Origin: an uncultured Amaricoccus sp.
GTDB taxonomy: Bacteria; Pseudomonadota; Alphaproteobacteria; Rhodobacterales; Rhodobacteraceae
Assembly (NCBI RefSeq): GCF_937858865.1
Contig: NZ_CALLYO010000454.1
Location: 1-11,922, forward strand
Length of the DNA stretch: 11,922 nucleotides
Direction: 5' to 3'
The position numbers and the translations under genes are program-made. Of the stretch, positions 189 to 11,922 are shown piece after piece. The notes under the pieces are model-generated. The model saw nothing but the letters and a program-made list of their open reading frames with translations. It was not told the origin of the DNA and did not search any database. The first letter of the stretch is position 1. The number at the start of each line of letters is the position of its first letter.

Positions 189-1781
189 TCACTGGGCCCC
201 ACCCTCGAGCGCCTCGATCCGGGCCTCGAGCGCCGCGCGCTCCCGCAGCCGGGTGTCCTCGTCACGGATCCGGGCGAGCGAGCCGATCAGCTCCGACCAG
301 CCGTAGGTATAGGTGAAGCCGCCGGGGTTGGCATGCGCCAGGCCCTTGAAGTGGCGCATGATCTCCTGCTCCCACATCTGGGCGTATTCGTACTCCGCCG
401 CGCTCGGGTTGTTCCCCTCGGTCCAGAAGAGCCCGAAGAACCCGCCCGGCACGTCCGCCTCCGGCTCCGGCGGCGCCGGCCGATTGGTCGCCTGCCCGAC
501 CAGCAGCCCGTCCTCGTAAAGCCCCTTGACGACCGCCTCGGCCTGCTGCACCAGCCCGACCCCCTGCGCCGTCCCCTTGTCGATCATCTCGAAGTAGCTC
601 TGCGCGAAGCTCGGCGCATGGCACTGCGAGCAGGTCGCGATCCACAGATCCTTGCGCTCCTCGAACCAGGGATGATCGAGGTTGTCGGCGATCGACGGCA
701 TCGGCGAGAAGCCCCAGCGGACCTTCTGCACCAGGTTGTGGCTGTAGGTCCCGTTCGCCTCCATGTGGCAGGTCTGGCAGGTCGGCGCCGTATAGCCGGC
801 CGAGGCGAAGGCCTCCGACAGCGGCGCATCCCAGTCCCACTCGGCGCCGCCGGTCTGGTAGATGATGCCGTGCCGCGAGAGCATGAAGGCCTCGAACTCG
901 TTGTGGTCGACGCCGTTGTGGCAGTTCGAGCAGACCTCCGGCTTGCGCGCCTGGGCGGCCGAGAACTCGTGCCGCGTGTGGCACTGGTTGCAGGTCGCCT
1001 GCGTCGTGTGGCACATGGTGCAGCCCTCGGCGATCTCGCGCTCGGCCATCCCCGCCCAGATCGCGGTCTCGTAGTTGGCCAGCATCGACAGAGCATGGCT
1101 CGGCCGCCCGGCGGGCCACTGCTCCTGCGGCCAGGTCAGCGTGTCGCGCTCGGACTCCCGCTCGGCGAACTGCTGCACGTGGCACTGGCCGCAGGCCGCG
1201 GAGTCGGGCAGCCGCAGGTCGGTCTTGTGATTGCCGCCCGCGCTCCCGACGCCCATGTGGCAATCGGCGCAGCCCACCTGCTCGAGGCTCTGCCCCTCGG
1301 GCAGCAGCCCCATCGACCGCAGGTTGCCTTCCACCTCCTCGATCATCGCCTTCTTGTAGGCGCGGGAATCGTCGTCGGGCAGCGCTCGGATCGCGTTCAG
1401 GTCGCCGTGCACGCTCTTCTGCCAGCCATGCACCCAGCGCGGGGTGATCGACTCGTGGCAGGTGACGCAGTCCGCCGCCTCGACGTCGAAATCGAGCTCG
1501 TCGCGCCCGGTATAGAAGAGCGTGGGATCGAGATAGGCCGACATGGGAATCGGCTCCCAGAGATCGGCGAACTTGCCCTTGCCCGCGCCCTGCGCCGCGT
1601 CGCGATAGCGGGCCGCAACCGCATCGTAGAGCACGTTCGGCGGGGCGTCCGGGGTGATGCCGAGCGCATCGTAGAGTTCCTGCGGCACCTCGGCCGAGGC
1701 GGGCGCCTGCACGAGAAGGAAGGCGGCGAGCAACGCCGCGACCTTCGTCCATGCCCTGCGCGCTGGCTGCCTGGGTCCCAT
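189..1781 (-). CDS. hao: Hydroxylamine oxidoreductase-family octaheme cytochrome c
   Basis: Predicted exported multiheme enzyme of 530 aa. Residues 1-30 are a Sec signal peptide ending in ASA. Eight CxxCH heme motifs begin at C105, C171, C197, C254, C264, C284, C335 and C384, the full octaheme set. In this family the fourth heme is the catalytic P460 site. An Asp-His pair at 292-293 after the sixth motif matches the known active-site pair. The tyrosine-containing segment GGFTYTYGW (487-495) lies in the C-terminal region, where the Tyr that crosslinks to P460 in oxidative HAOs is found. This favours oxidation of hydroxylamine (to NO or nitrite) over reductive action, but the alignment is inferred. 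Length is close to Nitrosomonas HAO (about 570 aa precursor), and no C-terminal membrane helix is seen. ATG at 1781 is chosen because GGAGGACAG lies just upstream and the signal peptide starts there. A longer frame to 1862 adds an unlikely 27 residues. No ammonia monooxygenase or cytochrome c554 gene is in the window. Confidence 0.92.
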   Translation of the reverse strand: MGPRQPARRAWTKVAALLAAFLLVQAPASAEVPQELYDALGITPDAPPNVLYDAVAARYRDAAQGAGKGKFADLWEPIPMSAYLDPTLFYTGRDELDFDVEAADCVTCHESITPRWVHGWQKSVHGDLNAIRALPDDDSRAYKKAMIEEVEGNLRSMGLLPEGQSLEQVGCADCHMGVGSAGGNHKTDLRLPDSAACGQCHVQQFAERESERDTLTWPQEQWPAGRPSHALSMLANYETAIWAGMAEREIAEGCTMCHTTQATCNQCHTRHEFSAAQARKPEVCSNCHNGVDHNEFEAFMLSRHGIIYQTGGAEWDWDAPLSEAFASAGYTAPTCQTCHMEANGTYSHNLVQKVRWGFSPMPSIADNLDHPWFEERKDLWIATCSQCHAPSFAQSYFEMIDKGTAQGVGLVQQAEAVVKGLYEDGLLVGQATNRPAPPEPEADVPGGFFGLFWTEGNNPSAAEYEYAQMWEQEIMRHFKGLAHANPGGFTYTYGWSELIGSLARIRDEDTRLRERAALEARIEALEGGAQ

Positions 1782-1821
1782 CGTCCTGTCCTCCGCGGGG
1801 AGCCTCGGTCGCAATCCCTCA

Positions 1822-1839
1822 CCGCCAACCTGCCGCCAA
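1822..1839 (-). promoter_or_regulatory. Tandem heptamer upstream of hao, 11-bp period
   Basis: On the minus strand TTGGCGG occurs twice with 4 bases between copies, giving an exact 11-bp period (plus-strand CCGCCAA at 1822-1828 and 1833-1839). It lies about 40-60 bp upstream of the hao ATG. Direct repeats one helical turn apart are a common form of activator site, for example for OmpR/PhoB-type regulators. No clear -35/-10 pair could be placed beside it, so the regulatory role is inference. Confidence 0.3.
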
Positions 1840-1855
1840 AGGAGACGAGGCCGTA

Positions 1856-1869
1856 GGTCCACCCGGACC
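1856..1869 (-). repeat. Small inverted repeat between ccmB and hao
   Basis: GGTCC-ACCC-GGACC is a perfect 5-bp inverted repeat with a 4-base loop, in the 146-bp gap between the ccmB stop and the hao start. There is no T-run on either side, so it does not look like a standard intrinsic terminator. It may be a weak hairpin or chance. Confidence 0.25.
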
Positions 1870-1927: not shown

Positions 1928-2593
1928 CTACCGGAGATTGGCGCGAAGCGCCGCCGCCGCGGCCGGCGGCGCGAGGGCGAGGACGAAGAGGGTGAGGCCG
2001 CCGAGAAGCATGAATGCCGGCCACGGGTCGGCGCCCTCGGCTGCCGACGCAGCGGCACGGGCGCCGAAGATCAGCGACGGCAGATAGAGCGGCAGGACCA
2101 GGATCGAGAGCAGCAGCCCGCCGCGGCGGATGCCGACGGTTACCGCCGCCCCGATGGCGCCGAGAAAGCTGAGCGCCGGCGTGCCGACGGCAAGGCTCGC
2201 GACCAGCCACGGATAGGCCGGCGCCGGCAGATGCAGGGTGAGCGCGAGGAGCGGCGCGGCCGCGACGAGGGGCAGACCCGTCGTCAGCCAGTGCGCCACC
2301 GCCTTGAGCGCGACGAGAGCCTCGAGGGGCAGGGGAGAGAGAGCGAGAATGTCGAGGCTCCCGTCCTCCTGATCGGCCTGGAAGATCCGGTCGAGCGACA
2401 GCAGGCAGGCGAGGAGCGCGCCGATCCAGAGGGTCCCTGCGGCGAGACCGGCCAGTCGCTCCGGCTCCGGCCCGACCCCGAGCGGAACGAGCAGCACCGC
2501 GATCAGGAAGAAGGCCAGGCCGAGGCCAGCGCCGCCGCCGGAGCGAAAGGCGAGCGTCAGCTCGCGCGCGAGGACCGCCCCGGCCGCACTCAC
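1928..2593 (-). CDS. ccmB: CcmB, membrane subunit of the cytochrome c maturation ABC transporter
   Basis: Membrane component of System I cytochrome c biogenesis. With CcmA it drives release of heme-loaded CcmE from CcmC, so that heme can be attached to c-type cytochromes in the periplasm. The 221-residue protein has the usual family length and about six hydrophobic segments (near 22-40, 50-67, 95-120, 127-150, 158-177 and 192-215). Diagnostic stretches are the cytoplasmic loop LDRIFQADQEDGSLDIL (67-83) and the segment RRGGLLLSILVLPLYLPSL (156-174). The start is GTG at 2593. Its bases overlap the ccmA stop (GTGA, 4 bp), so translation is probably coupled. The stop is TAG. In many alphaproteobacteria ccmC, ccmD and ccmG follow directly. 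Here the next gene is hao, 146 bp away. Confidence 0.93.
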   Translation of the reverse strand: MSAAGAVLARELTLAFRSGGGAGLGLAFFLIAVLLVPLGVGPEPERLAGLAAGTLWIGALLACLLSLDRIFQADQEDGSLDILALSPLPLEALVALKAVAHWLTTGLPLVAAAPLLALTLHLPAPAYPWLVASLAVGTPALSFLGAIGAAVTVGIRRGGLLLSILVLPLYLPSLIFGARAAASAAEGADPWPAFMLLGGLTLFVLALAPPAAAAALRANLR

Positions 2594-3234
2594 GTCCAGG
2601 CGCCCTGGAGGAACGGATCGCCGGCGGCCGACGCCGTCTGCGCTTCCGCCGCCAGCACCAGCTCACGCGCGGGCGCGAGATCAAGCGGAACGTGCGTCGC
2701 GACGATCGCGAGCCCGCCGCCGGCCGCGTGCTCGCGCAGAACCCGAAGCAGGCGGCCCGTCGCATCGGCGTCGAGCGCGACGGTAGGCTCGTCGAGCAGC
2801 CAGAGCCGGCGCGGCGCGACCAGGAGGCGGGCGAGGCAGATGCGCCGCTTCTGCCCGGCCGAGCAGAGGTGCGCGGGCCGTTCGGCCAGCGGCCCCAGGT
2901 CGAAGGCGGCGAGCGCCGCTCCCGGATCCCCGCCGAAAAGGCGCGCCCAGAAGCGCAGGTTCTCGGCGACGGTGAGCTGCGGCTTGATCGCATCGAGATG
3001 GCCGGCATAGGCGACGGCGTCGGCGCGGCCCTCGCCGCCGACGGCACGGCCGTCGATCTCCATGCGGCCCGAGGCGGGCAAGAGGCCGGCGAGTGCCCGG
3101 AGCAGGGTCGATTTGCCGGAACCGTTCGGGCCGCGCAGGATCAGCGTCTCGCCGGAGCCGAGCGCGAACGAAAGCCCGCGGAGAATGAGGCGGCCGCCCC
3201 GGGTACAGGATAGGTCAGTGACGGTCAGCCCCAT
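2590..3234 (-). CDS. ccmA: CcmA, ATP-binding subunit of the cytochrome c maturation ABC transporter
   Basis: Cytoplasmic ATPase that works with CcmB on the CcmC-CcmE heme-handling complex. The 214-residue length is normal for CcmA. Visible ABC motifs are Walker A GPNGSGKST (35-43), a signature CSAGQ (124-128) in the CcmA-type context HLCSAGQKRR, Walker B LWLLDEPT with D148 and E149, and the switch histidine H181 in ATHVPLDL. The QKRR after the signature is typical of CcmA compared with other small ABC ATPases. The ATG at 3234 fits the length of the family, but only a weak GGGAA precedes it. The gene is first in a minus-strand ccmA-ccmB unit and is divergent from the heat-shock gene at 3461. 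Confidence 0.94.
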   Translation of the reverse strand: MGLTVTDLSCTRGGRLILRGLSFALGSGETLILRGPNGSGKSTLLRALAGLLPASGRMEIDGRAVGGEGRADAVAYAGHLDAIKPQLTVAENLRFWARLFGGDPGAALAAFDLGPLAERPAHLCSAGQKRRICLARLLVAPRRLWLLDEPTVALDADATGRLLRVLREHAAGGGLAIVATHVPLDLAPARELVLAAEAQTASAAGDPFLQGAWT

Positions 3235-7593: not shown

Positions 7594-9216
7594 TCAACGC
7601 CTCCTGCCGCCACCGCCACCGCTGCGACCCCCACCCCTGCTGATGCTGGCCCGGCCGCGATTGCTGGCCGCCGAGGCGCGAGGGCCGGACGGCCTGTCGA
7701 AGGCGCTGCTCGAACGGCTGGGCGCCCTTGCCGAGGGGGCGCGGTTCGCCGAGGGACGCGAGATGTTCGCCGGCCGGGCCGTCGTCGGCCGCTGCTGCGC
7801 CGCGCCGCGCTGGACGGACGCTTCCGGGCGCGTGGCCTGGCGCGACGGCCTGAGGCTCGCGGGCTGGGTGCCGACCGACTTCCGCGCCTCGATCTTCTGG
7901 CGGGCGACCTCGCGGCTGGCCCCGCTGGAGATCGGTGTCCGGTTGCCGGCGCCCGCCCGGTCGCCCGCCCGGTCACCCGCGCCGGCGCGGTCGCCGATGC
8001 CGGCGATCTCGCCGCGGTCGATCTGCGTCCGGTCGCTGTCGCCGATGCTGACCCGGTCGCCGTCCCCTATCTGCGGTCGATCCCCGTCGCCGATGCCGAT
8101 GTCACCGCGATCGACGTCGATGTCGTCGCGATCGACATCGATGTCGATATCGTCGCGGTCGATGGTGATGTCGCCGCGGTCCCAGTCGATGTCGTCGTCG
8201 CTGTCCCAGCCATCCCAGTCGTCATCGTCGAATATCTCGTCGAGGATGACCGCGCCGCCGAGGATGATGCCGCCCGCCACGAGCGCGTCGCCCCAGTCGT
8301 CCCAGTCGTCGTCGTAGCCGTAACCGTAATGATAGACCGGCGGGCCGGCGACCGGCGTGGTATAGACGACCTGGCTGTCGTAGGTCGGAACGTAGACGAC
8401 GTTGGGGTCGGCCGGGGCGATGACGATCTTGTCGTTCACCTCCTCGACCTGCTGCACCTCGTTGTCGACGAGGTAGCCGTTCTCCTGCGCCCGGACCCTG
8501 AGCCGCTGGATCGCCGCGAGCACCTCGTCGGTCTGGGCGACCACGGCCTCGCCGGCCTGCTCGGTCCAGTCGATGTTGTCGCTCATCCGGGTCACCACGT
8601 CCGGGAAGCCGGCGGCGAGCTCGCGGACACTGTCGTCCCATGGCTGGCCGGCGGCCTGCGTCGCGCGCTCCCGGTCCGGGGTGTCCCCCGACTCCTCGAC
8701 GAAGCGCGCCGCCTTGACCACGTCGAGCGGAAAGGTCGACGCCACCAGAACGGTCGTGAGCACCTGGTCGGGGAAGAGCGCCACCGGGCCGAGCAGCGTC
8801 TCGAGCTCGGCCGCCTCGAGCGGACCCTCGGCCGCGACCGCGGCCTTGAGCGAGGCCGCCGCCTCGGCCGCCTGCTCGGGCGTCAGGACCGCGCCGCTCG
8901 CATCGACGCAGGGAATCGTCAGTTCCATGCCGACGGCGACGCTTTCGGGATTTCCGCCGAGCGCGTCCCAGTTCGCGTCGGCTATGAAGCCGTAGAGCAA
9001 CGGATCGCCATAGGCGCGTTCGGCCAGCACGCTGAGCGTGTCGCCGCTCGCCACGACGTAAGGGGACCCGCAAGCCAGCGACCCGTCGCCGACCAGCATC
9101 TGGGCCGCGGCGGGAGACAGGCCGGAACCGGCGAGGAGTGCCGCGGCGAGACCGCGAACCGCGCGGCGCCGGCTCGAGTGAAGGGCACGAAGAGCGCGCA
9201 ATCGGTGCGAAGGCAT
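7594..9216 (-). CDS. Exported DUF3300 protein with LysM-like N-terminus, acidic repeats and Arg/Gly-rich tail
   Basis: Function unknown. The 540-residue protein has five visible parts. (1) A basic N-terminus and hydrophobic core with AAA before Q39, read as a Sec signal peptide. (2) A LysM-like domain (about 51-102; YVVASGDTLSVLAERAYGD through VAVGMELTIP), bracketed by the only two cysteines, C49 and C103, which may form a disulfide. (3) A DUF3300 core (about 135-290; LLGPVALFPDQVLTTVLVAS, WDDSVRELAAGFPDVV, IVIAPADPNVVYVPTYD). (4) A short hydrophobic stretch (311-325), then a very Asp-rich block (329-400) with repeats. (5) A Ser/Arg/Ala-rich basic tail ending GGGGGRRR. LysM domains usually bind peptidoglycan, so wall attachment is inferred. 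ATG at 9216 has AGGACGCAG upstream; an extension to 9285 looks spurious. DUF2950 follows after 1 bp. Confidence 0.85.
   Translation of the reverse strand: MPSHRLRALRALHSSRRRAVRGLAAALLAGSGLSPAAAQMLVGDGSLACGSPYVVASGDTLSVLAERAYGDPLLYGFIADANWDALGGNPESVAVGMELTIPCVDASGAVLTPEQAAEAAASLKAAVAAEGPLEAAELETLLGPVALFPDQVLTTVLVASTFPLDVVKAARFVEESGDTPDRERATQAAGQPWDDSVRELAAGFPDVVTRMSDNIDWTEQAGEAVVAQTDEVLAAIQRLRVRAQENGYLVDNEVQQVEEVNDKIVIAPADPNVVYVPTYDSQVVYTTPVAGPPVYHYGYGYDDDWDDWGDALVAGGIILGGAVILDEIFDDDDWDGWDSDDDIDWDRGDITIDRDDIDIDVDRDDIDVDRGDIGIGDGDRPQIGDGDRVSIGDSDRTQIDRGEIAGIGDRAGAGDRAGDRAGAGNRTPISSGASREVARQKIEARKSVGTQPASLRPSRQATRPEASVQRGAAQQRPTTARPANISRPSANRAPSARAPSRSSSAFDRPSGPRASAASNRGRASISRGGGRSGGGGGRRR
8023..8094 (-). 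repeat. Three tandem octapeptide repeats (IGDxDRxx) in the DUF3300 protein
   Basis: Three back-to-back 24-bp units encode IGDGDRPQ, IGDGDRVS and IGDSDRTQ (residues 375-398 or so). They follow a related Asp-rich stretch (8101-8260) with DRxDI-type units such as IDRDDIDIDVDRDDIDVDRG. Codons differ between units, so the repeat is old or kept at protein level. Its Gly/Asp pattern could bind cations, but it is not a standard RTX motif. Confidence 0.65.
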
Positions 9217-9446
9217 CTGCGTCCTGCTCCTGTCTCGACCTTGCACCACGCTGGCCAGGTCGCCGGCTGCAACTCTACCGAACACCGCGATGGCGGAACA
9301 GGGGCCTTTCCCGGCGCCGAGCGCCGCGCGCGCCCGTCAACGAATCAAACACGACTCTTTCAGGTGCAATACGCATTCCATACCGATTCCACATGCGTCC
9401 CAGATCGAACGAATCTCCGTAAACCCTTGCCGCCGAACGACCCCGG
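9217..9446 (-). promoter_or_regulatory. Gap upstream of the DUF3300 gene with an AT-richer block and 11-bp direct repeat
   Basis: This 230-bp gap separates the hydrolase genes from the DUF3300-DUF2950 pair. The part at about 9330-9425 is much richer in A/T than its surroundings, as expected for a promoter. It holds TGGAAT twice on the minus strand with an 11-bp period (plus-strand ATTCCA at 9375-9380 and 9386-9391). A TTGCAC element follows, but the matching -10 is poor. No intrinsic terminator for the upstream hydrolase gene was found. Confidence 0.35.
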
Positions 9447-10319
9447 TCAGGGCTCAACCCCGCCCAGGAACCCCCCGACATAGCCTGCATAGAGCGCGGG
9501 TTGCTCCAGGTTCATCGAGTGCCCGATGCCGGGCACGGTGACGAGGCGGCAATGCGGCATCTCCGCGGCCATCCGCTTCACGTCGGCCGCCGGAATCCAG
9601 CCGTCCATCTCGCCCCAAAGCACGAGATGCTCGTTCTCGAGGGAAGGCATCCTCTTCGCAAGTTCCCCGCTGACATACTCGACGTTCAGGTTGTGCGGCG
9701 TGCCGAACCAGATGCCTTCCGCGACGCCGAAGGTCTGGTCGATGATCCGGTCGAAAAACTTCTGCAGCTCGTCCACACCCTCTCTGAACCTCGGCATCGA
9801 CCCGGGCTTCAGGCTGTCGGCCAGGAACAGCGACGCCGCGGCAGTGGCCATCCCGGCGCGGGTCACCTCCTTGCTCGCCTGCATCGCCCTGAAGACGGCG
9901 ATGCCCGCATCGTCGAACTTCAGGCCGAGCGGCGTGACCGGGTCGAGCGCGAGGCAGCGGCCGAACCGCTCCGGCTGCGCGAGCATCATCCGGGCGGCGA
10001 TGATTCCGCCGGTCGAGTGCGTGGCGAGGTGGCAGCGGGCGATCCCGAGCGCGTCGAGCGCCGCCAGCATGTCGTCGGCATGCTGCTGCATCGAGTAGTT
10101 GGCATAGTCCGGCGCGGCAGGCGGGCGATCGCTGTCGCCACAACCGCGCCAGTCGATGCCGATCACCCGCAGGTCCTTGGGGAACCAGCGCGCCGAAAGC
10201 TCGATCCAGTCCTTGCTGGCGAGGTTGCCGTGGATGAAGAGCACCGGGATGGGACCGTCGCCCCACTCCCGGTACGCAAGGCGCACGCCCCCGCCGACCT
10301 CGACCTTCCCGGCGCTCAC
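9447..10319 (-). CDS. Alpha/beta hydrolase, probably cytoplasmic
   Basis: Serine hydrolase of the alpha/beta-fold superfamily; substrate unknown. The 290-residue protein has the fold's main motifs in order: oxyanion HGN (30-32), IDWRGCGDSDRP (55-66), nucleophile elbow THSTGG with Ser102, a helical cap region (about 130-215), acid Asp239 in LWGEMDGWIP and His267 in PGIGHSMNLEQP. The first glycine of the usual GxSxG elbow is Thr here. No signal peptide is seen. The start is GTG at 10319, overlapping the stop of the preceding gene by 4 bp (GTGA). No Shine-Dalgarno is seen, so translation is probably coupled. It is the last of three consecutive hydrolase-like genes and, unlike the two before it, lacks the APERPSGFSK tail. 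Esterase, lactonase or haloalkane dehalogenase-like activity are all possible. Confidence 0.87.
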   Translation of the reverse strand: MSAGKVEVGGGVRLAYREWGDGPIPVLFIHGNLASKDWIELSARWFPKDLRVIGIDWRGCGDSDRPPAAPDYANYSMQQHADDMLAALDALGIARCHLATHSTGGIIAARMMLAQPERFGRCLALDPVTPLGLKFDDAGIAVFRAMQASKEVTRAGMATAAASLFLADSLKPGSMPRFREGVDELQKFFDRIIDQTFGVAEGIWFGTPHNLNVEYVSGELAKRMPSLENEHLVLWGEMDGWIPAADVKRMAAEMPHCRLVTVPGIGHSMNLEQPALYAGYVGGFLGGVEP

Positions 10320-11671
10320 TTGGAGAAACCAGACGGGCGCTCCGGCGCCGCCGCCGCCGCACCGCCACCGCCACCGCCCTGCACGATCGGCAGGTTCACG
10401 TTGTCGACGAAGGACTTCACCTGGTCGCGGAGCACGTTCGGGGCCTTGAAGACCGCATAGTGCGCCGTCGGGTCCGGGAAGGAGAGGAAGCTCGCTCCCG
10501 GCACCTTCTCCGCGGCGGCGCGCGCGTTCGCCACCATCAGCCAGTTGTCGTTCTCTATGTGAATGACCAGCGTGCGGGCCGTGATCCGCTCGAGATAGTC
10601 GTTGATGTTGTAGTTCCAGCCCGCGTTGTTGCGGTACCAGTAGTCGTTCGGGTCCTCGTTGACCGTCCGGGCGAGCCACGCCGCCGTCTGGTTGCCCGTC
10701 GGCTCCCAGTAGAAGACCTCACGCTCGACGGCCGACCAGGGTTGAGCCGAGCGGTAGGGGAAGCTGTAGCCGGTCTGCTGCAGGATCGACCACAGGAACT
10801 GCAGGCCTTGCTTCGGATGCTCGGCTTTCGGCAGGTCGTAGAAGTTGCCCCCGGTCTCGCGATAGAGCGGGTCGCTCTCGATCGCGGCCGTGGCGAGGCG
10901 GAAGGTCCACTGCCCGACCGGGTCGGAGCCGTCCGATGCGGTCGCGCCGCCGAGCGGCATGATCGCGTCCACGAAGCCCGAGGGCGAATACATCGCCCCC
11001 CAGACCCAGGTCTGGGTCGCCCCCATCGACGCGCCGAAGGCCAGATGAACGTTCGCCACGTTCAGGTGATCGCGCAGGAGCTGGTAGTTCGCCTGCACCA
11101 TGTCGAAGTAGTTGTATTCCGGGAAGTTCCGCCCCAGCCCCTCCGACGGCTTCGACGTCCCCCAGAGGCCAAGGGAGTCGAGGAAGACCACGTAGTACTT
11201 GTTGGTGTCGATCACCAGCCCCGGACCGACCACCGGCTCGCCGCCGGCCAGCGGGTTTGCCGCCATCGGCATCCAGTAGCTGTAGCTCGCGGTCGAGTCG
11301 CCCGAGTAGTGCGGGCTCACGATCACCGCGTTGATGATCTCCCCGGCCTCGTTGCGGATGGGCGTGCCGACGTCGATGTAGGCGGTCTTGAGCGGCCCGT
11401 AGCCGAGGCTCTCGAGGGTCGTTCCCCCCACGCCGCCGTCGCGCCAGGTCTCCGGATCGGCAGTGAGATCGTATGTCCCGCCGATCCGGAAGTTCGGGAT
11501 ATCGTAGAACTTCTTGAGCGAGGAGAGCGTCGGCGTGCTCGACGCCGGCGTGAACGCCTCGTTGGGCGGCGGCGCGGCACTGGTCGAAAGGAGGTCGGCC
11601 GTCGCCGGCGCCCCGGCCATGGCCAGCAGCGACGTCGCCACGAGAAACCTTAGCATGAGCTTGCTGAACAT
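10316..11671 (-). CDS. Secreted alpha/beta hydrolase, homoserine acetyltransferase (MetX)-like fold, with C-terminal tag
   Basis: Exported alpha/beta-fold protein; true substrate unknown. The 451-residue protein has a Sec signal peptide (1-25, ending ATA before DLLST). Its catalytic elbow is AFGASMGATQTWVW with Ser215 and the late residues Asp375 (HIENDNW) and His404 (PTAHYAV) complete a likely triad. The elbow and its context resemble the MetX group of acyltransferase-like hydrolases. MetX itself is cytoplasmic, so an exported hydrolase is likelier than methionine synthesis. After the catalytic domain (ends about 428) comes Gly6-Ala5 and then PERPSGFSK at the end. The same ending is on the gene just upstream. 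ATG at 11671 has GGAGGGACCGAG before it. The start lies 20 bp after the upstream stop, and the stop overlaps the next start. Confidence 0.82.
   Translation of the reverse strand: MFSKLMLRFLVATSLLAMAGAPATADLLSTSAAPPPNEAFTPASSTPTLSSLKKFYDIPNFRIGGTYDLTADPETWRDGGVGGTTLESLGYGPLKTAYIDVGTPIRNEAGEIINAVIVSPHYSGDSTASYSYWMPMAANPLAGGEPVVGPGLVIDTNKYYVVFLDSLGLWGTSKPSEGLGRNFPEYNYFDMVQANYQLLRDHLNVANVHLAFGASMGATQTWVWGAMYSPSGFVDAIMPLGGATASDGSDPVGQWTFRLATAAIESDPLYRETGGNFYDLPKAEHPKQGLQFLWSILQQTGYSFPYRSAQPWSAVEREVFYWEPTGNQTAAWLARTVNEDPNDYWYRNNAGWNYNINDYLERITARTLVIHIENDNWLMVANARAAAEKVPGASFLSFPDPTAHYAVFKAPNVLRDQVKSFVDNVNLPIVQGGGGGGAAAAAPERPSGFSK
10319..10348 (-). other. C-terminal APERPSGFSK tag, copy A
   Basis: Last ten codons of the MetX-like protein, after a Gly6-Ala4 linker. 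Compared with copy B the residues are identical, while five codons (Pro, Arg, Ser, Gly, Ser) differ at the third base only. The final AAG-TGA also supplies the GTG start of the next gene. Confidence 0.75.
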
Positions 11672-11691
11672 CTCGGTCCCTCCCCGCCGCA

Positions 11692-11922
11692 TCACTTCGA
11701 GAATCCGGACGGACGCTCGGGCGCACCCCCGCCCCCGCCGCCCGCCGCCGCCGCCGGCGCTGCCATTCCGTTGACGAGCGCGTCGATGACATCGGGCGAG
11801 ACGGCATCGACCGCACTGGTCTTGATGAAGGAGACCGTATCGGCGGCGAACTCGAACGGCACGTCCGTGTGGATGAAGTGGCCGACGCCCGGATAGATCT
11901 TGGCCGCCACCGGATTGCCGGC
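11692..11922 (-). CDS. Partial alpha/beta-hydrolase-like protein, C-terminal end, with tag
   Basis: Only the last 76 residues lie in the window; the start is beyond the right edge. The visible part starts AGNPVAAKIYPGVGHFIHTDVPFEF and continues to DTVSFIKTSAVDAV. The PGVGHFIHTDVP element looks like the catalytic histidine loop of alpha/beta hydrolases, followed by the usual last helix. After this come a DVIDALVNGM helix, an Ala/Gly6 linker and the ending APERPSGFSK, the same as in the next gene downstream. That gene starts 20 bp after this stop (TGA at 11694-11692), so they are likely one operon. Whether this protein is exported cannot be seen. Confidence 0.7.
   Translation of the reverse strand, partial: AGNPVAAKIYPGVGHFIHTDVPFEFAADTVSFIKTSAVDAVSPDVIDALVNGMAAPAAAAGGGGGGAPERPSGFSK
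11695..11724 (-). other. C-terminal APERPSGFSK tag, copy B
   Basis: Last ten codons of the partial hydrolase-like protein, after an Ala4-Gly6 linker. The linker has glycine and alanine runs in the opposite order from copy A, while the ten residues are the same. Confidence 0.75.

What the first reader, a model, noticed from the sequence alone, without database searches (positions are those of the whole stretch)
10316..11724. Shared ten-residue C-terminal tag (APERPSGFSK) on two adjacent, diverged hydrolases
Seen directly: two neighbouring genes end in exactly APERPSGFSK after a Gly6/Ala-rich linker, while the domains before the linker show little resemblance by eye. Of ten codons, five differ and every change is silent (CCG/CCC, CGC/CGT, TCT/TCC, GGT/GGA, TCC/TCG). 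That pattern points to selection on the peptide, not a recent DNA copy. The linker's Gly and Ala runs are swapped in order, as expected of a free spacer. One carrier clearly has a signal peptide; the untagged third hydrolase has none. Inference: a short C-terminal sorting, anchoring or docking tag for exported enzymes. It lacks the membrane helix and basic end of PEP-CTERM-type signals, so it would be a different kind.
Basis: partly seen in the sequence, partly recalled or inferred. Interest (0 to 1): 0.75.

Follow-up and report, generated by a model that had tools for sequence, protein, structure and literature searches.

The report
C-terminal lysine tag on exported hydrolases
Two exported bacterial enzymes end in the same short peptide after a floppy spacer, and their relatives in other bacteria keep the same or a similar ending; it probably fastens the enzymes inside the cell envelope, perhaps to the cell wall itself.

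Summary
Genes A and B both end APERPSGFSK; five of ten codons differ, all silently. A continues on another contig: signal peptide, MetX-like domain, second alpha/beta-hydrolase domain, spacer, tag. B is a signal peptide, a MetX-like domain (49% identical to A's), spacer, tag.

The ending is a family trait. P-x-G-[LF]-[AS]-K ends 120 of 120 listed B homologues and 116 of 120 listed A homologues. Over all 334 homologues listed in three searches (many near-identical), [LFMI]-[ASN]-K-COOH ends 331; the other three look truncated or out of frame. A and B of one organism tend to change together: two sister species have KPAGLSK on both genes where this one has RPSGFSK. I found it on no other protein family in the genomes sampled, so a general sorting tag for many enzymes is not supported.

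AlphaFold leaves the tail disordered. Some homologues look like lipoproteins and still keep it. Best reading (0.4): an anchor like the 'Lpp box' of Braun lipoprotein and OutB, whose C-terminal lysine an L,D-transpeptidase links to peptidoglycan. Main rival (0.35): non-covalent docking. Neither is proven; both need the bench.

The parts
11692..11922 (-). 3' end (76 aa) of gene A: C-terminal alpha/beta-hydrolase domain end, spacer, tag; gene continues on contig C432
11725..11763 (-). spacer of A: AAPAAAAGGGGGG
11695..11724 (-). tag of A: APERPSGFSK-COOH
10316..11671 (-). gene B: 451 aa, signal peptide, MetX-like alpha/beta-hydrolase domain, spacer, tag
10349..10378 (-). spacer of B: GGGGGGAAAA
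10319..10348 (-). tag of B: APERPSGFSK-COOH
9447..10319 (-). gene C: untagged alpha/beta hydrolase (PF00561 7.3e-23), no evident signal peptide; relatives in 4 of 8 loci with the pair and beside A in L074

Best explanation
A and B are paralogous exported (in some lineages apparently lipid-anchored) alpha/beta hydrolases. Each carries an added tail: an unconserved flexible spacer and a conserved end whose core is hydrophobic-(A/S/N)-Lys-COOH. The tail is an anchoring handle, not part of the catalytic fold. Most likely mechanism: it works like the 'Lpp box' of Braun lipoprotein and Dickeya OutB. [quoted passage not shown] Shown here: conservation, exact C-terminal position, peptide-level constraint, linked change in A and B, export signals (by rule and eye), predicted disorder, L,D-transpeptidase genes in nine hosts. 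Inferred: the covalent link itself, and the enzymes' job (splitting an outside ester whose acid is later activated as a CoA ester).
For: C-terminal Lys with a hydrophobic residue at -3 in 331 of 334 listed homologues, nothing ever added after the Lys in those (P0144, P0230, P0231 are the misses and look truncated or out of frame). Lys at -1 is never Arg in the 331, while -7 varies between Lys, Arg and others. N-terminal hydrophobic segment in 117 of 120 B and 210 of 214 A rows. Seven B and two A rows have a lipobox by eye (of 13 pattern matches) and keep the tag, the layout of Lpp. Tail disordered in AlphaFold models of B and of an A relative. YkuD proteins in 9 of 9 genomes tested. Published: OutB's C-terminal Lpp box is necessary and sufficient for tethering, moves to a periplasmic reporter, tolerates substitutions, improves with Tyr at -3; some Lpp orthologues end S/RYTK, close to F-S-K (PMC12274547, abstract, passages and section 9).
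Against: No direct evidence of a peptidoglycan link. C-terminal Lys is common: over 20% of E. coli periplasmic proteins and lipoproteins (PMC12274547). YkuD genes are widespread (6 of 14 control genomes), so their presence says little. Gly -4 (196 of 207 scored A rows) and, in B, Pro -6 (120 of 120) are stricter than the substitution-tolerant Lpp box would need. The residue at -2 is small, not basic as in E. coli Lpp. I know of no C-terminal-lysine tether shown in alpha- or betaproteobacteria (recalled and from the review passages).
Confidence: 0.4

Rival explanations
1. Non-covalent docking peptide: the tail, free carboxylate included, is bound by a pocket on a partner. The simplest receptor is the MetX-like domain that A and B share, in trans, giving A-A or A-B assemblies; an unlinked envelope protein is the alternative.
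For: Strict Gly -4 and Pro -6 in the main clades and linked change of the tag in A and B; in two sister species both genes end KPAGLSK, in the own genome both RPSGFSK. Every carrier listed has a MetX-like domain of this family.
Against: Single-chain models do not dock the tail on the own domain, though they cannot test another chain. A keeps a tag in L074 with no B beside it, so A-B docking alone is not enough.
Confidence: 0.35
2. Protective C-terminus: the end keeps tail-specific periplasmic proteases off the floppy tail.
For: Exact C-terminal position and charged last residue; the spacer is disordered.
Against: Does not need Gly -4, Pro -6 or lineage-matched change in A and B; simply losing the spacer would do as well.
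Confidence: 0.12
3. Signal for passage or display beyond the periplasm by a secretion machine.
For: Carriers have signal peptides and lie near porin genes in some loci.
Against: No secretion genes seen in the stretches compared; tag kept in lipoprotein-like forms; no comparable known signal (recalled).
Confidence: 0.08
4. A DNA- or RNA-level effect (overlap with the next start codon, gene conversion) keeps the ending.
For: In the window AAGTGA overlaps the GTG start of C, and A ends AAGTGA in all 8 pair loci. In G003 the A and B tags differ by one silent codon only, as conversion would give.
Against: 18 silent against 4 replacement differences within eight genomes; 4 silent, no replacement in G010; B rows ending TAA or TAG keep the peptide.
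Confidence: 0.03

Closest known systems
Lpp box of Braun lipoprotein and Dickeya dadantii OutB (L,D-transpeptidase substrates)
   Same: Free C-terminal Lys on an exported protein, short box at the end of a flexible extension (30 residues in OutB), hydrophobic or aromatic residue helpful at -3
   Different: Here on enzymes, in alpha-, beta-, gamma- and desulfobacterial lineages; small residue at -2; stricter box; link not shown
Sortase, PEP-CTERM, GlyGly-CTERM and similar C-terminal sorting signals (recalled)
   Same: Short conserved motif at the C-terminus of exported proteins
   Different: No membrane helix or basic end after the motif; nothing follows it; one gene family only
MetX-type acyltransferases and MekB / E22 esterases
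   Same: Fold of the B domain (best Foldseek match 5jkj_A, E 1.7e-20, TM 0.60); sequence matches 5e4y, 5d6o, 5jkf
   Different: Far below curated cut-offs (61.7 against 500 bits for MetX_acetyl; best PRK06489.1, 155.5 against 305); exported; tail added

Membership tests
Lpp-box peptidoglycan-tethered proteins | Lysine exactly at the C-terminus | tested here: met
   331 of 334 listed homologues
Lpp-box peptidoglycan-tethered proteins | Export to the periplasm | tested here: met
   hydrophobic N-terminal segment in 117 of 120 B and 210 of 214 A rows, a crude rule; lipoboxes in nine by eye
Lpp-box peptidoglycan-tethered proteins | YkuD L,D-transpeptidase in the host | tested here: met
   9 of 9 genomes; weak, since 6 of 14 control genomes also have one
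Lpp-box peptidoglycan-tethered proteins | Covalent amide to diaminopimelate of peptidoglycan | not testable with these tools
   needs sacculus biochemistry
PEP-CTERM / sortase-type sorting signals | Membrane helix and basic residues after the motif | tested here: not met
   the motif is the very C-terminus
PEP-CTERM / sortase-type sorting signals | Many unrelated carriers in one genome | tested here: not met
   only the pair in the own genome and in five genomes with the pair, apart from matches taken as chance
MetX homoserine acetyltransferase | Curated NCBIfam cut-off | tested here: not met
   61.7 against 500 bits
alpha/beta-hydrolase superfamily | Fold and nucleophile motif | tested here: met
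   Foldseek matches; PF00561 in A relatives; invariant S215, D375, H404 in 61 B rows, their catalytic role being my reading

The most novel reading that the evidence does not exclude
Gram-negative bacteria fasten whole catabolic enzymes covalently to peptidoglycan through a portable, lineage-tuned C-terminal lysine tail, so that the cell wall is the scaffold for a two-enzyme ester-degrading assembly; the tail was kept although the domain in front of it was exchanged or lost between A and B.
Probability: 0.33. Interest if true: 0.75.

Novelty: new variant of a known kind. Interest (0 to 1): 0.6.

Why it matters
The OutB authors suggested that more periplasmic proteins with a C-terminal lysine are bound to the wall. 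Here is an enzyme family in which that end is under family-wide selection in several bacterial classes, so the idea can be tested in a named strain (Dechloromonas denitrificans carries the pair). If the link is not covalent, it is still a short, lineage-specific C-terminal docking peptide on exported enzymes that could be used to hold cargo in the envelope. The sources name the family only homoserine acetyltransferase, pimeloyl-ACP esterase or alpha/beta hydrolase; I found nothing in print on its tail in the searches.

Tried and rejected
General sorting tag: not supported. Narrow pattern: 1 of 147 relatives, the own genome; that pattern demands E at -8 and F at -3, and it missed the pair in G003 and G010, found later by protein search, so alone shows little. 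Loose pattern: in 5 genomes with the pair, 11 matches, 10 of them the pairs; in the own genome 3, one antisense to a gene. In 300 genomes of one order 44 had a match, 49 matches in all, 4 of them the two pairs, against about 51 control matches by my hand count of the table. I looked at 34 of the other 45: 13 have no stop codon at the end, the rest show no Gly/Ala spacer by eye; 11 were not looked at.

Recent duplication of whole genes: rejected; paralogous domains are 49-54% identical.

P0226 (1224 aa) as a B-A fusion: first thought so; the tree joins its two MetX-like domains to each other (100/96), so it is a separate internal duplication. P0230 reads from A into B out of frame and was not used.

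A-B docking as the sole role: weakened by L074, where A has no B beside it. A B elsewhere in that genome is not excluded: one search scored only two candidates there, and one search was a pattern for the GLNK ending. Lysine as an acyl-carrying swinging arm: thought of, no evidence. Plasmid searches gave only distant relatives (best rows 25-30% identity); the two I read lack spacer and tag, although one ends in Lys. Pfam gave nothing for E. The outgroups were too long-branched to root the tree.

Against or mixed: over all 17 tags of nine loci codon differences are 300 silent and 169 replacement, so lineages do differ. The tag agreement is not corrected for kinship. Three pairs disagree at -2 and two at -7. 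Two of eight C, D and E rows pass the crude export rule.

Own errors: read gene C in a wrong frame (no families); corrected. Two control rows were out of frame; redone. Two tree rows (P0048, P0089) were cut short.

Full report
WHAT IS THERE. The window is one whole contig (C454, 11922 bases) of a 3.6 Mb draft assembly. On its minus strand lie the end of gene A (11692 to the contig end), gene B (10316-11671) and gene C (9447-10319). A and B end in APERPSGFSK after Ala/Gly spacers in opposite order; five of ten codons differ, all silently. The rest of A is on contig C432: the contigs overlap by 55 bases, and the joined reading gives 837 aa from MLKVIRLVAV..., with signal peptide, MetX-like domain, second alpha/beta-hydrolase domain, spacer and tag. 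Before A on C432 lie a small lipoprotein-like gene and a porin (Porin_4, 5.5e-15); on the other strand are relatives of D and E.

THE ENDING IS A FAMILY TRAIT. Of 299 B homologues found, 120 are listed, and 120 of 120 end P-x-G-[LF]-[AS]-K after spacers that share no clear sequence. In five named betaproteobacterial loci B follows a gene A with the same kind of ending; in L006 only the end of A is held. For A, 120 of 486 found are listed; 116 of 120 have the ending. The misses are P0144, P0230 and P0231 (truncated or out of frame by eye) and the variant P0226 (KKGAFSK). A third search, from P0226, listed 120 of 429, 94 of them new. Only 4 of these 94 have the strict form; 73 end PTAGLNK, others AFSK, ILSK, LLSK, GMSK, GLSK. 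The deep constant is therefore [LFMI]-[ASN]-Lys-COOH: 331 of 334. Many of the 334 are near-identical. Gly -4 stands in 196 of 207 scored A rows. Residues further in are kept only within lineages.

SELECTION ON THE PEPTIDE, AND LINKED CHANGE. In eight genomes with both genes the last six codons of A and B differ by 18 silent and 4 replacement changes. In the window's genus 3 of 11 genomes have the pair. The own genome has RPSGFSK on both genes; G003 and G010 have KPAGLSK on both, although their spacers differ between A and B. In G010 the A and B tags differ by four silent codons and no replacement, in G003 by one silent codon. So the tag changed at three positions (-7, -5, -3) in both genes together. 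In 31 A/B pairs the residues agree at -3 in 31, at -7 in 29, at -2 in 28 and at -5 in 17, each more than in shuffled pairs (p 0.0002 to 0.0064, not corrected for kinship). A tree of 68 MetX-like domains puts all 24 B rows in one clade (100/100) amid A rows, so A and B parted long ago. In the part holding the own genes, A and B end FSK or LSK; in the other large part both mostly end LAK, with LSK exceptions. The root is not fixed. If B came from an A-like gene, it lost the second hydrolase domain and kept the tail.

NOT A GENERAL TAG. Pattern searches found the ending on the pair and otherwise at about control level (of 45 other matches in 300 genomes 34 were looked at). The pair is patchy: 3 of 147 relatives, all in the window's genus, own genome only in a sample of 289 of the class, 2 of 121 in one family, 2 of 60 in one genus. 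With a Bradyrhizobium A as query 2 of 385 genomes of the class matched. In the second, G923, A (PTAGLNK; 86% identical to the query) stands with C, D and E, no B beside it, and near CoA-transferase, MaoC-like and DUF3141 genes.

SETTING. A, B, D (PcaD-like hydrolase) and E (about 200 aa, no Pfam match) occur in 8 of 8 loci with the pair that I compared; C in 4 of 8; an OprD-type porin in 3 of 8, another porin in the own genome. L006 begins inside A, so its upstream side was not seen. D, E and C show no clear signal peptide; two of eight rows pass a crude hydrophobicity rule, with the segment 21-35 residues in. The substrate is unknown; an ester whose acid enters by CoA-transferase is my inference from two loci (own and L074).

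HOW IT MAY WORK. Single-chain AlphaFold models leave the tail of B (432-451) and of an A relative (P0233, 817-838) under pLDDT 50, with mean pLDDT 81.5 and 83.4 overall (alignments of 61 and 47 rows). That speaks for a free handle but cannot exclude docking to a second chain. Carriers look exported; seven B and two A rows have lipobox-like starts (13 pattern matches, nine kept by eye) and still end in the tag, so it does more than keep the protein at a membrane. A free C-terminal Lys after a hydrophobic residue at -3 is the layout of the Lpp box. In Dickeya, OutB's box is necessary and sufficient for attachment to peptidoglycan, two L,D-transpeptidases catalyse it, the box transfers to a periplasmic reporter, and Tyr at -3 strengthens it; some Lpp orthologues end S/RYTK (PMC12274547: abstract, passages, section 9). 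A review lists other lysine and N-terminal tethers (PMC12729407, passages); DpaA work describes the Lpp bond (PMC8263019, passages); Lpg1810 is tied by a lysine of its C-terminal tail (PMC11841132, passages). All nine genomes tested have YkuD proteins, as have 6 of 14 controls. In the 331 ends Lys at -1 is never Arg, while -7 varies. This suggests chemistry at the amine; it is not proof. The same OutB paper notes that over 20% of E. coli periplasmic proteins and lipoproteins end in Lys, so a terminal Lys alone means little.

WEIGHING. I give 0.4 to covalent anchoring, 0.35 to docking, 0.12 to protection from proteases, 0.08 to a secretion signal, 0.03 to a nucleic-acid effect. Gly -4, Pro -6 and the linked change in A and B are the best arguments for a docking pocket; the unbroken terminal Lys, the lipoprotein forms and A without a neighbouring B are the best for anchoring. 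In print: the motif letters gave three unrelated papers (listing); a conserved C-terminal peptide on hydrolases and the gene set gave none; two broader searches listed nothing on this family's tail (eight rows shown of each).

Noticed in passing
window 11868-11922 and contig C432 1-55: The contig breaks inside gene A; the two contig ends overlap by exactly 55 bases, so A is split by assembly, not by biology.
   Followed up: yes
L091-L094 (G003, G010): Sister species carry the pair with KPAGLSK on both genes instead of RPSGFSK, with different spacers on A and B.
   Followed up: partly
P0226 (1224 aa): A relative with two MetX-like domains in tandem, made by its own internal duplication, a lipobox-like start and the variant end KKGAFSK.
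   Followed up: partly
L007 2338-3333 (-), L008 2181-3209 (-) and relatives: Gene D hydrolases of the betaproteobacterial loci end in Pro/Ala/Lys/Arg-rich basic tails; the D of L074 does not.
   Followed up: no
L007 1724-2452 (-) and relatives: Gene E, about 200 aa, recurs beside A and D but has no Pfam or NCBIfam match in the members scanned.
   Followed up: partly
L074 1216-3441 (+): A DUF3141 protein (PF11339, 2.5e-294) lies near A in a Bradyrhizobium-like genome, with CoA-transferase and MaoC-like genes.
   Followed up: no
P0327: An A protein labelled Leptospira interrogans by its source looks like the Bradyrhizobium ones in length, start and ending; I suspect a mislabelled or contaminated record.
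   Followed up: no
window 189-1862 (-): Multihaem cytochrome-like protein with many CxxCH motifs, next to what look like ABC exporter genes (1928-3234, -); by eye only.
   Followed up: no
window 7594-9285 (-): Exported-looking protein with a long Asp/Ile-rich repetitive stretch and a Gly/Arg-rich end, downstream of C; by eye only.
   Followed up: no
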